Positions 48,024 to 54,796 of a stretch of DNA of 54,796 bases are shown here, one piece after another. How positions within the stretch are numbered: the stretch's first letter is position 1; each line of letters begins with the position of its first letter. A program made the position numbers and the translations under genes. A model generated the notes under the pieces. It saw only the letters and a program-made list of their open reading frames with translations. It made no database searches and was not told where the DNA came from. Source of the stretch: an uncultured Bacilli bacterium (GTDB taxonomy: Bacteria; Bacillota_I; Bacilli_A; RF39; UBA660). The DNA lies in contig CANQKX010000007.1 in assembly GCA_947624565.1 (NCBI GenBank), forward strand, positions 1 through 54,796. Reading direction: 5' to 3'.

Positions 48024-48716
48024 TTAATTTTGCTTATCTCTATGATTTGGAATATATGAAAAAACTTTGTCACTTAATTTTATATCTTTATTTTTTCCAT
48101 ATTCTTTTTCTAAACCTTCAATATAAGATTTCATTTCTTGTAATGATTCAATTTGTGAAATATTTTCTTCATGTTCAACTTTTTTGATATTAATATATTT
48201 AAATTTTTCTATATAATTCAAAATCTCCTCACGACAATTGATTTTATAAAATTCTTTCCCTTTATTTTTTTTAGCAAATTTAATAATTCCTTTTGAAAAA
48301 TCTATCGATTCATTTAATATTATAATCAAATTTTCAATATTTCCAGCATACTCGAAAGTTTGAGGACGTGTTGCAATATAACATAAAACAGGATTTTCAC
48401 AAATTTTAATTACCTTTACTAAATCATCTATATTTCCTGTAAAATCTTGTAAATTTTTATTTGTTGCTAATTCATATAAATATTTATTTGTGCAAACTTT
48501 CATTATTTTGATTAAATTATCAATACTTCCTGCAAATTTATACAAATCTTTATTTGTTGCTACGCACACTGAATAATTTGAATCTAATGATTTTAAACTA
48601 TTTAATAGTTTTATAACTTCTTCATCTGAAATATCACTATAAATATTTAACATATTCTTAACTTCATTAACATCATTAATTCTTTCCATAATCATTTGCA
48701 TTGTTGATACTTTCAT
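48024..48716 (-). CDS. Protein with about three 31-residue helical repeats
   Basis: This 230-residue protein is not one I can name. I place the start at 48716 (MKVSTMQMIMER), after AGAAGGTGAAAAA. Between residues about 55 and 140 it has tandem units beginning IDNLIKIMKVC, IDDLVKVIKIC and IENLIIIL. The units include the pattern ATNK or IATR followed about seven residues later by an aromatic. This is very similar in pattern to the 34-residue repeats of the partial gene at 53478-54796 (IDEQIRLIK, CE, IAT). An alpha-solenoid binding protein is the likely structure. It is cytoplasmic. Confidence 0.75.
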   Translation of the reverse strand: MKVSTMQMIMERINDVNEVKNMLNIYSDISDEEVIKLLNSLKSLDSNYSVCVATNKDLYKFAGSIDNLIKIMKVCTNKYLYELATNKNLQDFTGNIDDLVKVIKICENPVLCYIATRPQTFEYAGNIENLIIILNESIDFSKGIIKFAKKNKGKEFYKINCREEILNYIEKFKYINIKKVEHEENISQIESLQEMKSYIEGLEKEYGKNKDIKLSDKVFSYIPNHRDKQN

Positions 48717-48772
48717 TTTTTTCACCTTCTTTGAGTACATATTATGCCAAAAATAATATTTAAAGTCAATAT

Positions 48773-50842: not shown

Positions 50843-53377
50843 CTATTTTACCATCTGCTTTAATTCATATAATACATTCATCGCATCAATAGGAGTCATT
50901 TCTAGTGGATTTATTTTTTTAAGTTTTTCTTCTATTTCATTTTTTTCCTCTTTTAAATCAAATGATATTTGCTCATTATTACTTATTACTTTCTTATTAC
51001 TATTTTTCTCATAACTATTTAATATTTCATTTGCTTTATTTATAAGTTCATCTGGTAATTTAGCAAGTTTTGCAACATGAAGTCCATAACTTTTATCAAT
51101 ACTTCCATCTTGTATTTTATGTAAAAATATAATATCACCATTTTCTTCTTTTGCTGATACATGAACATTTTTTATATGCTTATGATTTTTTTCTAAATCA
51201 GTTAATTCATGATAATGTGTTGAAAAAAATGTTTTAGCCTTAACTTTATCATGTATATATTCTATAATGGCTGCGGCTAAACTCATACCATCATATGTTG
51301 CTGTTCCTCTTCCTAATTCATCAAATAATATTAAACTATTTTTAGTTGCATTACTAATTGCACTATTTGCTTCCATCATTTCTACCATAAATGTTGATTC
51401 ACCAGAAACTAAATCATCAGATGCTCCTATTCTTGTAAATATTTTATCAAAAATAGGAATATTTGCTTTTGATGCAGGAACAAATGATCCAATTTGAGCC
51501 ATAATAGATATTATTGCCATTTGCCTCATATATGTTGATTTACCTGCCATATTAGGTCCTGTTATTAACATAATAGTATCATCATTATTCATTTTAATAT
51601 CATTACTAACAAATTCAGTATTAGTTAATACTTTCTCTATTACAGGGTGTCTAGCATCTTTTATATCTATTATATTTTCATTATTTAATGTTGGTCTTAC
51701 ATAATTATTTTCTTCTGCTACTACTGATAAAGAAGAAAGTACATCAATTTCACTTAATATATGTGCTAAATCTTGTATTTTTGGAATATATTTTTTTATT
51801 TCATCTCTTATTTCAATAAATAACTGATATTCTAAAGATATTATCTTTTCTTCTGCTCCTAATATTAATGATTCTTTTTCTTTCAATAAAGGAGTTACAA
51901 ATCTTTCACAATTAGCAAGTGTTTGTTTCCTTTCATATCCAAATTCTTCTTTTATATCTTTACAAGCACCTTTACTAACCTCAATATAATATCCAAATAT
52001 TCTATTATAACCAACTTTTAAAGTCTTAATTCCAGTTCTTTCTTTTTCTTCTTTTTCTAATTTAGAAATAAAATCTTTATTACCTTTTCTAGATAATTTA
52101 AGTTCATCTAAATCATTGTTATATCCATCTTTTATTAAATAACCTTCTTTTAATGTTATAGGTGCATCTTCATATATTGATTTTTCAAGTAAATCATATA
52201 AATTAGTAAATTCTTCTATTTCTTTATAATTTATTTTCTTTAATATTTTATTAATTTCAGGCAATACTCTAAATGAATTTTTAAGTTGAAGTAAATCTCT
52301 TGCATTAGCAGAACCAAAAGATATTTTTCCAATTAAACGCTCTAAATCATATACTTCAGATAAATATTCTCTTAATTCTTCTTTTAATATAAATTCTTTC
52401 ATTAAAGTTTCTACTATATCATATCTATATTCTATTTTTTCTTTATCTACTAGTGGATTTAATATATATGATTTTAATTTTCTACTTCCCATTGCAGTTT
52501 TAGTCTTATCTAAAAGCCATAATAGTGAAAACTTCTTTTCTTTAGTTCTTATATTTTCTACAAGTTCTAGATTTCTTTTAGTATGTATATTCATTCTTAA
52601 AAAAGAATCTTCTTTTACTAACTTTACACTTTGAAGATGTGATAAATTTCTTTTTTGTGTATTTTCTAAATATGATAATAAATATTTTATACAAGATATT
52701 ATTCTTTCATCGTTAATATTATTATATACATGTGAATAATCATTTTCTAAATTTGTATTATTATATATTGATATTGTGACATTATAATTTCTTCTTAAAG
52801 TATCTAAAGTTAATTTATCAAAATCAGTATTTACAACTACTTCTTTAATATTTCTTTCTAAAACTTCATTAATAATTAAATCATTATCTTTTTCTTTTAA
52901 AAACGCATAAAATTCTCCAGTAGTAATATCTGCATAACTAACTACATATATATACTTTAAATCTAATATAGCACCAATAAAATTATTAGATCCTTCATCA
53001 ATAAAATCACTATTCATTCTAGTACCTGATGATATTATTTGAACTATATCTCTTTTTACTATACCTTTAGCATTTTTAGGATCTTCAGTTTGTTCACATA
53101 TTGCTACTTTATAACCTTTTTCAACTAATTTTTCTATATATATACTTGCAGAATGATATGGAATTCCACACATTGGAACTCTTTCATCTAATCCACAACT
53201 TTTCCCCGTTAATGTAAGTTCTAACTCTTTTGATGCAACTAAAGCATCTTCAAAAAACATTTCATAAAAATCTCCAAGTCTAAAAAACAATATATTATCT
53301 AAATTTTCCTCTTTTATTTCTAAATATTGTCTCATCATTGGAGTTATTTTTTCTCTATCTACTTCTTGTCTTGTCAC
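50843..53377 (-). CDS. mutS: DNA mismatch repair protein MutS
   Basis: MutS recognises mismatches. The 844-residue length is normal. The mismatch-binding FYE motif is in RLGDFYEMFFEDA near residue 36. The connector, lever and clamp domains follow. The ATPase has Walker A GPNMAGKSTYMRQ near residue 610, Walker B LILFDELGRGTATYDG, and STHYHEL. A C-terminal tail with PLEMTPIDAMNVLYELK is present. The start is a GTG with AGGTGAAG upstream. mutL is not next to it in this window; the downstream gene encodes an aminopeptidase. Confidence 0.97.
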   Translation of the reverse strand: MTRQEVDREKITPMMRQYLEIKEENLDNILFFRLGDFYEMFFEDALVASKELELTLTGKSCGLDERVPMCGIPYHSASIYIEKLVEKGYKVAICEQTEDPKNAKGIVKRDIVQIISSGTRMNSDFIDEGSNNFIGAILDLKYIYVVSYADITTGEFYAFLKEKDNDLIINEVLERNIKEVVVNTDFDKLTLDTLRRNYNVTISIYNNTNLENDYSHVYNNINDERIISCIKYLLSYLENTQKRNLSHLQSVKLVKEDSFLRMNIHTKRNLELVENIRTKEKKFSLLWLLDKTKTAMGSRKLKSYILNPLVDKEKIEYRYDIVETLMKEFILKEELREYLSEVYDLERLIGKISFGSANARDLLQLKNSFRVLPEINKILKKINYKEIEEFTNLYDLLEKSIYEDAPITLKEGYLIKDGYNNDLDELKLSRKGNKDFISKLEKEEKERTGIKTLKVGYNRIFGYYIEVSKGACKDIKEEFGYERKQTLANCERFVTPLLKEKESLILGAEEKIISLEYQLFIEIRDEIKKYIPKIQDLAHILSEIDVLSSLSVVAEENNYVRPTLNNENIIDIKDARHPVIEKVLTNTEFVSNDIKMNNDDTIMLITGPNMAGKSTYMRQMAIISIMAQIGSFVPASKANIPIFDKIFTRIGASDDLVSGESTFMVEMMEANSAISNATKNSLILFDELGRGTATYDGMSLAAAIIEYIHDKVKAKTFFSTHYHELTDLEKNHKHIKNVHVSAKEENGDIIFLHKIQDGSIDKSYGLHVAKLAKLPDELINKANEILNSYEKNSNKKVISNNEQISFDLKEEKNEIEEKLKKINPLEMTPIDAMNVLYELKQMVK

Positions 53378-53419: not shown

Positions 53420-53470
53420 TAAAATAAAAAACTAATCAAATAGTTTATATTAATACACTATTTAATTAGT
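53420..53470 (-). terminator. Terminator of the 34-residue-repeat gene
   Basis: ACTAATCAAATAGT (53431-53444) pairs with ACTATTTAATTAGT (53457-53470) over 14 positions with one mismatch. On the minus strand TTTTTATTTT follows. It closes the large repeat gene. Confidence 0.8.
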
Positions 53471-53477
53471 CTAAAAA

Positions 53478-54796
53478 TCAATCTTTTTTAGGTTTATAAA
53501 CAGGAACTAAAGTTTCTGAATTTACATCTTTAATTTTTAATTTTTTTAAATATTCTCTCATTTGATCCAATGTTTGAATATTATTTATTATAGTAGCAAT
53601 GGAATCTAAACATTTTTTTTCACGTTTATCCGCTTCTTTTATTAATCTTATTTGCTCATCTATTGTTTTGTTTTTTAGTATATCAATATTTCTTGCAATA
53701 ATTGATGCTTTGTTTTTATCTTCACATTTATCTACTTCTTTTATTAATCTTATTTGTTCTTCTATTGTTCTATTTTCTAATACATTAGTATCTGTTGCAA
53801 TAAATGATGCTATGTTTTTATCTTCACATTTATCTACTTCTTTTATTAATCTTATTTGCTCATGTATTGTTCTATTTTTTAGTACACTAGTATTAATTAC
53901 AATAAATGATGCTATGTTTTTATCTTCACATTTATCTACTTCTTTTATTAATCTTATTTGCTCATCTATTGTTCTGTTTTTTAATACATTAATATCAATT
54001 GCAACATATACTATGTATTTACTTTCATGTTTATATACTTGTTTTATTAATCTTATTTGCTCATCTATTGTTCTATTTTTTAGTACATCAATACTAGTTG
54101 CAATAATTGATGCTATTTTTTTACCTTCACATTTATCTACTTCTTTTATTAATCTTATTTGTTCTTCTATTGTTCTGTTTTTTAGTACATCAATATTGAT
54201 TGTAATATCTGATGCTATTTTTTTACCTTCACATTTATCTACTTGCTTTATTAATCTTATTTGTTCTTCTATTGTTCTATTTTCTAATACATTAGTATCT
54301 ATTGCAATATCTTTTGCTATGTATTTATCTTCACATTTATCTACTTCTTTTATTAATCTTATTTGTTCTTCTATTGTTCTGTTTTTTAGTACAGCAAGAT
54401 CAATTGCAATAACTGATGCTTCTTCTTTTTCTTCACATTTATCTACTTCTTTTATTAATTTTATTTGTTCTTCTATTGTTCTGTTTTTTAGTACATCAAT
54501 ACTAGTTGCAATAATTGATGCTATGCTCTTAATTTCATATTTATCTACTTCTTTTATTAATCTTATTTGCTCATCTATTGTTCTGTTTTTTAGTACAGCA
54601 ATACTAGTTGCAATAAATAATGCTTTGTTTTTATTTTCACATTTATCTACTTGTTTTATTAATCTTATTTGCTCATCTATTGTTCTGTTTTTTAGTACAT
54701 CAATATTTCTTGCAATAATTGATGCTTTTTGTTTATCTTCACATTTATCTACTTGTTTTATTAATCTTATTTGCTCATCTATTGTTCTGTTTTTTA
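53478..54796 (-). CDS. 3' part of a gene for a protein of 34-residue tandem repeats
   Basis: The frame is open from the window edge to TGA at 53478-53480, so 439 codons of the C-terminus are visible and the start is missing. It consists of eleven near-identical 34-residue units, one of them 33 residues long, and a diverged last unit. The consensus is LIKxVDKCEDKxxASxIA, then TxIxVLKNRTI(D/E)EQIR. A tail of about 35 residues (from LDQMREY to VPVYKPKKD) follows. There is no membrane segment or signal in the visible part. The pattern predicts two helices per unit and a solenoid. The length of 34 is that of TPR, but the TPR consensus residues are absent. The smaller gene at 48.0 kb encodes related units. 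I know of no family that it fits. Confidence 0.85.
   Translation of the reverse strand, partial: KNRTIDEQIRLIKQVDKCEDKQKASIIARNIDVLKNRTIDEQIRLIKQVDKCENKNKALFIATSIAVLKNRTIDEQIRLIKEVDKYEIKSIASIIATSIDVLKNRTIEEQIKLIKEVDKCEEKEEASVIAIDLAVLKNRTIEEQIRLIKEVDKCEDKYIAKDIAIDTNVLENRTIEEQIRLIKQVDKCEGKKIASDITINIDVLKNRTIEEQIRLIKEVDKCEGKKIASIIATSIDVLKNRTIDEQIRLIKQVYKHESKYIVYVAIDINVLKNRTIDEQIRLIKEVDKCEDKNIASFIVINTSVLKNRTIHEQIRLIKEVDKCEDKNIASFIATDTNVLENRTIEEQIRLIKEVDKCEDKNKASIIARNIDILKNKTIDEQIRLIKEADKREKKCLDSIATIINNIQTLDQMREYLKKLKIKDVNSETLVPVYKPKKD
53641..54796. repeat. 102-bp tandem repeat array, at least twelve units
   Basis: ATTAATCTTA recurs at 53641, 53743, 53845, 53947, 54046, 54148, 54250, 54352, 54454 (one base changed), 54556, 54658 and 54760. 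The spacing is 102 bases except for a single 99-base step. The conserved block (ATTAATCTTATTTG plus TCTATTGTTCTGTTTTTTAG) alternates with a variable block of about 45 bases. The array lies inside a reading frame and continues past the window edge. Confidence 0.95.

What the first reader, a model, noticed from the sequence alone, without database searches (positions are those of the whole stretch)
53478..54796. Unfamiliar 34-residue tandem-repeat protein with at least twelve units
The frame open at the right edge is built entirely from 102-bp units. Positions for helix packing (LIKxVDKC, ASxIA, VLKNRTI) are almost invariant, while about eight residues per unit (after CE and after IA) vary. That is the pattern of a modular solenoid with a variable binding surface. 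It does not match TPR, PPR, HEAT, ankyrin or LRV consensus as I know them. The near-identity of the DNA units suggests recent expansion and potential for copy-number change.
Basis: partly seen in the sequence, partly recalled or inferred. Interest (0 to 1): 0.8.

Follow-up and report, generated by a model that had tools for sequence, protein, structure and literature searches.

The report
New tandem-repeat helical protein family
The window ends inside a real gene for a helical repeat protein with at least 13 near-identical 34-residue units; it belongs to an undescribed, fast-changing protein family found so far only in one uncultured family of gut Bacilli, and it probably acts as a binding scaffold whose partner is unknown.

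Summary
The repeat is real: TRF finds a 102-bp unit, 11.6 copies, in frame on the minus strand. The window is a whole contig that breaks inside the gene. The 5' end lies on another contig of the same genome, joined by an exact 77-bp overlap. The joined protein has 532 aa: 62-aa N-cap, 13 units, 40-aa C-cap. Two further members share the caps: one in the window (48024-48740), one on contig C8. Pfam, NCBIfam and PADLOC give no match above cut-off. AlphaFold2 (pLDDT 75) predicts an alpha-solenoid, three helices per unit; fold searches return only generic solenoids. Relatives were found only in the window's own Bacilli family, patchy and often multi-copy; a GTDB-wide scan returned 12 loci, all in rabbit-named MAGs. 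At one orthologous site (pcrA-X-ligA) two species carry 7 and 14 units, so unit number changes. Variable residues cluster on the A-B loop, helix B and B-C loop, but an independent test gave no excess of amino-acid change, so a selected binding surface is unproven. About 5 of 14 loci abut mutS or mutL, unexplained: a hairpin terminator separates X1 from mutS, and varied genes occupy the mutL-upstream site. Most likely a cytosolic protein-binding scaffold.

The parts
53478..54796 (-). X1: 3' part of the tandem-repeat gene (438 aa in the window; start on contig C12, joined protein 532 aa)
   Evidence: open frame, TRF, 77-bp unique overlap with C12, ATG and RBS on C12
53568..54796 (-). array of 102-bp (34-aa) units; 12 in the window, the last one degenerate
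   Evidence: unit table and pairwise DNA identities 79-94% among the regular units
53976..54074 (-). 33-aa unit (one codon short, aberrant helix B)
   Evidence: unit spacing 33 at residue 334 of the joined protein
53481..53588 (-). C-cap, family-specific (IxxNIxTLxEMKxYIxxL...TLVYKY type)
   Evidence: profile A3: in this genome it finds only X1, X2 and X3
53429..53472 (-). hairpin with U-run between X1 and mutS, likely intrinsic terminator
   Evidence: RNA fold -17.8 kcal/mol, z -3.9; the stem is AU-rich, so the consensus terminator scan does not list it
50843..53377 (-). mutS, the next gene downstream, 100 bp from X1
   Evidence: ORF; TIGR01070 hit 1060.9 bits
48024..48740 (-). X2: second family member, about 3 diverged units, same N- and C-caps (likely start ATG at 48716)
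   Evidence: N-cap profile A2 E 4.0e-26, C-cap profile A3 E 2.0e-18; both profiles include this sequence as a row, so the aligned caps are the evidence

Best explanation
X1 is a cytosolic alpha-solenoid made of 34-residue units, each a long helix A (unit positions 3-14), a short helix B (19-26) and a helical turn C (29-32), closed by a conserved N-cap and C-cap. It belongs to an undescribed, lineage-restricted family of accessory, often multi-copy genes. Units are gained, lost and homogenised by recombination between 102-bp repeats. Structural positions (R1 T2, E5 Q6, hydrophobic 7, 9, 10, 13, 22, 25, 31, 32) are kept while the A-B loop, one side of helix B and the B-C loop drift. It most likely works as a protein-binding scaffold or adaptor whose partner preference follows unit number and surface residues. 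Shown: the array, the caps, the family, its distribution and the unit-number change. Predicted: the fold. Inferred: recombination as the mechanism of unit change, cytosolic location, protein binding.
For: Array and reading frame. Caps shared by members in several genera, with family-specific C-cap hits. AlphaFold2 with 19 rows: mean pLDDT 75, pTM 0.60, the same three-helix pattern in nearly every unit. Fold searches return only solenoids: designed helical repeats, TPR, PUF, importin and PP2A-type. Unit number 7 v 14 at pcrA-X-ligA between two species whose PcrA and LigA are 92% and 90% identical. One v two X genes before mutS in two near species. Most members are acidic (pI 4.6-5.7) and none carries a recognised catalytic domain, so protein binding is likelier than nucleic-acid binding.
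Against: The model is of medium confidence, from a shallow alignment. No partner is known. Positive selection on the presumed surface is not supported when positions are chosen independently. X1 itself is near neutral (net +4, pI 8.2), so charge does not exclude nucleic-acid binding for this member.
Confidence: 0.6

Rival explanations
1. A modular DNA- or RNA-binding repeat protein: each unit reads one or two bases through residues of the A-B loop and helix B, like other three-helix repeats found in gut Bacillota MAGs (pTERF).
For: Three helices per unit, most variable positions 18 and 20 in the A-B loop and start of helix B, neutral-to-basic charge of X1 and L117b; gut Bacillota tandem-repeat proteins with three-helix units bind DNA sequence-specifically (pTERF, PMC11417379).
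Against: Most members are acidic, down to net -35. Variation is spread over about nine positions instead of one or two. No profile match of the family to a pTERF-like protein (hhalign probability 0.1) and no mTERF Pfam hit.
Confidence: 0.15
2. A partner or regulator of mismatch repair: the family is kept beside mutS and mutL because it acts on the MutS-MutL pathway.
For: Directly upstream of mutS in the window and in two MAGs of another lineage, directly upstream of mutL in G135 and G138 and, as a diverged member, in G197 of the window's own genus. MutS of the two lineages is only 59% identical, so mutS and X did not travel together recently. About 5 of 14 loci, far above a uniform-placement expectation (my estimate, post hoc).
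Against: Terminator-like hairpins separate X from mutS in two genomes. The gene upstream of mutL is highly variable in this bacterial family, so the site looks like a general insertion place. The same-genus mutS loci read lack X1. Nine of 14 loci are elsewhere.
Confidence: 0.12
3. A host-interaction or surface protein whose repeat number varies phase-like to change binding or antigenicity.
For: Unit-number change and patchy distribution; all GTDB-scan relatives come from one kind of host by their names.
Against: The proteins begin directly with the N-cap MKIETM..., with no apparent signal peptide or transmembrane segment (by inspection, no dedicated predictor was run).
Confidence: 0.08

Closest known systems
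Tetratricopeptide (TPR) and other 34-residue helical repeats
   Same: unit length 34, stacked helices in a solenoid predicted
   Different: no TPR, PPR, HEAT, ankyrin, Sel1 or LRV Pfam hit listed for the 19 members at E 0.01; additional short third helix per unit
pTERF (prokaryotic mTERF-like tandem repeats; Hu et al. 2024, PMC11417379)
   Same: gut Bacillota MAGs, three helices per unit, tandem units, unit number 3-11 within that family
   Different: no mTERF match and no profile similarity to a pTERF-like protein of a relative; mostly acidic
Pfam LED_rpt (PF20854)
   Same: weak match E 1.4e-5, 25.4 bits
   Different: below its cut-off of 59 bits, matched by 1 of 19 members; its other hit among relatives (L034, G001:C28:22646-22936) falls in a collagen-like repeat gene, so probably compositional

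Membership tests
TPR / HEAT / PPR / ankyrin / LRV / Sel1 repeats | Pfam profile match above the gathering score | tested here: not met
   hmmscan of X1, X2 and 19 family members lists none of them
TPR and other alpha-solenoids | superhelical stack of helical repeats | tested here: inconclusive
   AF2 pLDDT 75 gives a helical stack; best Z 11.6 to a designed repeat, others about 7-9, which can be a common arrangement
mTERF / pTERF | mTERF profile match (PF02536) or similarity to a pTERF-like protein | tested here: not met
   no PF02536 hit in the family, hhalign probability 0.1 to L058, which itself hits PF02536 at 4.7e-33
mTERF / pTERF | sequence-specific DNA binding | not testable with these tools
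   needs SELEX/EMSA
LED repeat (PF20854) | score above the curated cut-off | tested here: not met
   25.4 v 59 bits
X family as defined here | N-cap MKIETM..., 34-aa units with R-T-x-x-E-Q-I-x-L, C-cap ending TLVYKY-like | tested here: met
   X1, X2 and X3 in this genome; X3 and X1 carry weaker C-caps (E 7.5e-15 and 2.9e-14)
Known anti-phage defence proteins | PADLOC model match | tested here: not met
   no match for X1, X2, X3 and others; one marginal 0.0077 hit for L120

The most novel reading that the evidence does not exclude
A modular recognition protein whose unit order encodes ligand specificity, diversified by recombination of 102-bp units, and functionally tied to mismatch repair (which would itself control repeat stability) in an uncultured gut lineage.
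Probability: 0.07. Interest if true: 0.8.

Novelty: new variant of a known kind. Interest (0 to 1): 0.42.

Why it matters
It is an undescribed repeat family with near-ideal consensus units, defined caps and natural unit-number variants at one orthologous site: useful raw material for repeat-protein engineering, and a tractable case of fast protein evolution in small-genome gut bacteria. A survey (PMC11417379) puts 95.6% of tandem-repeat proteins outside known families, so a new family alone is not rare; the recurrent placement beside mutS and mutL is the part that would be surprising if it proved functional.

Tried and rejected
LED_rpt, NOG1, Arg_repressor, OHA and similar stray Pfam hits: each hits one or a few members over short stretches, with a different family each time, taken as compositional noise. 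PHROG hits (phrog_12362 E 1.5e-12, phrog_7171 E 2.2e-8) cover 19-23 residues; tblastn of X1 and a relative against phage records and of the relative against plasmids, and an IMG/VR scan, found nothing, so a phage origin was dropped. Weak PDB profile hits to response regulators (E 7e-4) do not fit the predicted all-helical fold and were discarded. Positive selection on units: strong only with positions chosen post hoc, not with positions chosen from other genomes. A 71-aa ORF at the X1 site in G194 as a remnant of X: hhalign probability 0.8, rejected. Single-sequence AlphaFold gave pLDDT 57.6 and was not used. Weak N-cap hits to ~470-aa ORFs were MiaB in the two cases read (L062, L063). VIA-align listed no mTERF match among its rows; absence there excludes nothing.

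Full report
Observation. The minus-strand frame at 53478-54796 is a tandem array of 102-bp units (TRF score 1626). The window is the whole of contig C7 of a 1.06-Mb, 27-contig genome. Contig C12 starts with 77 bp identical to the window end, unique in both, and carries the first 119 codons of the gene including ATG and RBS. The joined protein has 532 aa: N-cap (1-62), 13 units (twelve steps of 34, 34, 34, 34, 34, 34, 34, 34, 33, 34, 34, 34) and a C-cap. Seventy-seven bp looks like an assembler k-mer (inference), so the break is an assembly effect of the repeat and further units may be collapsed.

Family. The same genome has two more members: X2 inside the window (48024-48740, about three diverged units, same caps) and X3 on C8 between dnaJ and a csoR-like gene. 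In 193 genomes of the bacterial family only five carry the double unit at E 1e-5; with the N-cap profile, clear matches (E below 1e-20) are in G000, G135, G138, G390, G159 and G169, with some weaker and partly unrelated hits. G138 has about six copies and G135 seven, five of them in a row. In 395 genomes drawn across the class there was no match outside the window's own family. A scan of 84,980 species genomes gave 12 loci, all in MAGs named 'Lapin' (rabbit) and titled uncultured Bacilli; that this means rabbit gut is read from the names. IMG/VR, phages and plasmids gave nothing. Diverged relatives exist: L057 (hhalign 99.3%), L070 upstream of mutL in the window's genus (96.3%), and L146, a 249-aa protein in G194 at exactly the X2 site between a membrane-protein gene and nusB (weak by profile, 35%; supported by synteny).

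Structure. AlphaFold2 on the window protein with 18 relatives gives mean pLDDT 75 and pTM 0.60, with helices at unit positions 3-14, 19-26 and 29-32 in nearly every unit. Foldseek and VIA-align return a mix of generic solenoids with low TM-scores and middling Z. So an alpha-solenoid is likely, and a specific fold relative cannot be named. No Pfam, NCBIfam or PADLOC model matches X1 or X2 above cut-off.

Unit evolution. Regular units are 79-94% identical in DNA, and the closest pairs are not neighbours (2 and 12, 94%), which suggests block duplication or gene conversion. Positions 1-3, 5-7, 9-11, 13-15, 17, 19, 22, 25 and 34 are invariant; 4, 18, 20, 21, 24, 27-30 vary. Over the whole unit pN is 0.125 and pS 0.112. 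At the variable positions pN is 0.35 and pS 0.115, but choosing positions by their variability biases this. With positions chosen from other genomes the ratio is about 1 in X1 and below or near 1 in most relatives; L110 is the exception (0.205 v 0.074). The surface therefore looks weakly constrained; diversifying selection is not demonstrated. Unit number does change: at pcrA-X-ligA, G138 has 7 units and G390 at least 14 while the flanking proteins are 90-92% identical and the caps 74-75%. The G390 figure also rests on a join at a repeat (75-bp overlap that occurs twice in one contig), but one of its contigs alone already shows eight 34-aa steps.

Neighbours. X1 lies upstream of mutS; two MAGs of another lineage (Lapin-017, Lapin-020) also have X directly upstream of mutS, with MutS only 59% identical to the window's while same-genus MutS are 79-86%. 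In G135 and G138 X lies upstream of mutL (C38 and C71 of G138 join through 77 bp), and in G197 a diverged member does. Other sites: pcrA-X-ligA, rnhB-X-topA, dnaJ-X-csoR, nrdG-X-X, efp-X. By my count about 5 of 14 independent sites abut mutS or mutL, post hoc. Against a functional reading: terminator-like hairpins between X and mutS, highly variable genes upstream of mutL across the family, and same-genus mutS loci without X1, including two (G196, G194) that keep nearby genes of the same neighbourhood. I leave the association as unexplained.

Function. The members read contain no recognised catalytic domain, no apparent secretion signal, and mostly acidic repeats. A protein-binding scaffold is the most economical reading; DNA or RNA binding as in pTERF (PMC11417379) is the main rival.

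Reading of novelty. It is a new sequence family of a known structural kind.

Conduct. That is among the things the task asks not to write out.

Noticed in passing
L058:461-1468 (genome G366): A bacterial mTERF-like repeat protein (Pfam mTERF E 4.7e-33), i.e. a pTERF, a class already described in PMC11417379.
   Followed up: partly
L046:3536-4756 (genome G169): A second solenoid-like repeat protein (KGANIEKLENAIIKTGDAKYIYEFA-type units) whose end overlaps the start of an X homologue on the same strand.
   Followed up: no
L045:2323-4491 and L059:1-2046 (genomes G159, G220): A 37-residue version of the repeat with a different C-cap, each beside a transposase-like gene (IS256 type by eye).
   Followed up: no
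L057, L130, L147 (genomes G054, G213, G772): Other repeat proteins with 34-residue spacing and different consensus; L057 is related to the X family by profile (99.3%), the other two were not compared.
   Followed up: partly
L124:4103-4312 and L128:4097-4312 (genomes G196, G194): Same-genus mutS loci carry a 69-71-aa ORF where X1 sits in the window; the one from G194 shows no profile match to the X N-cap.
   Followed up: partly
L082-L109, region upstream of mutL: The gene just upstream of mutL differs in almost every genome of this bacterial family, as if the site were an insertion place.
   Followed up: partly
G390:C6:9496-9570: An isolated piece of the family C-cap in a 32-aa frame, possibly a remnant of a lost X gene.
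   Followed up: no
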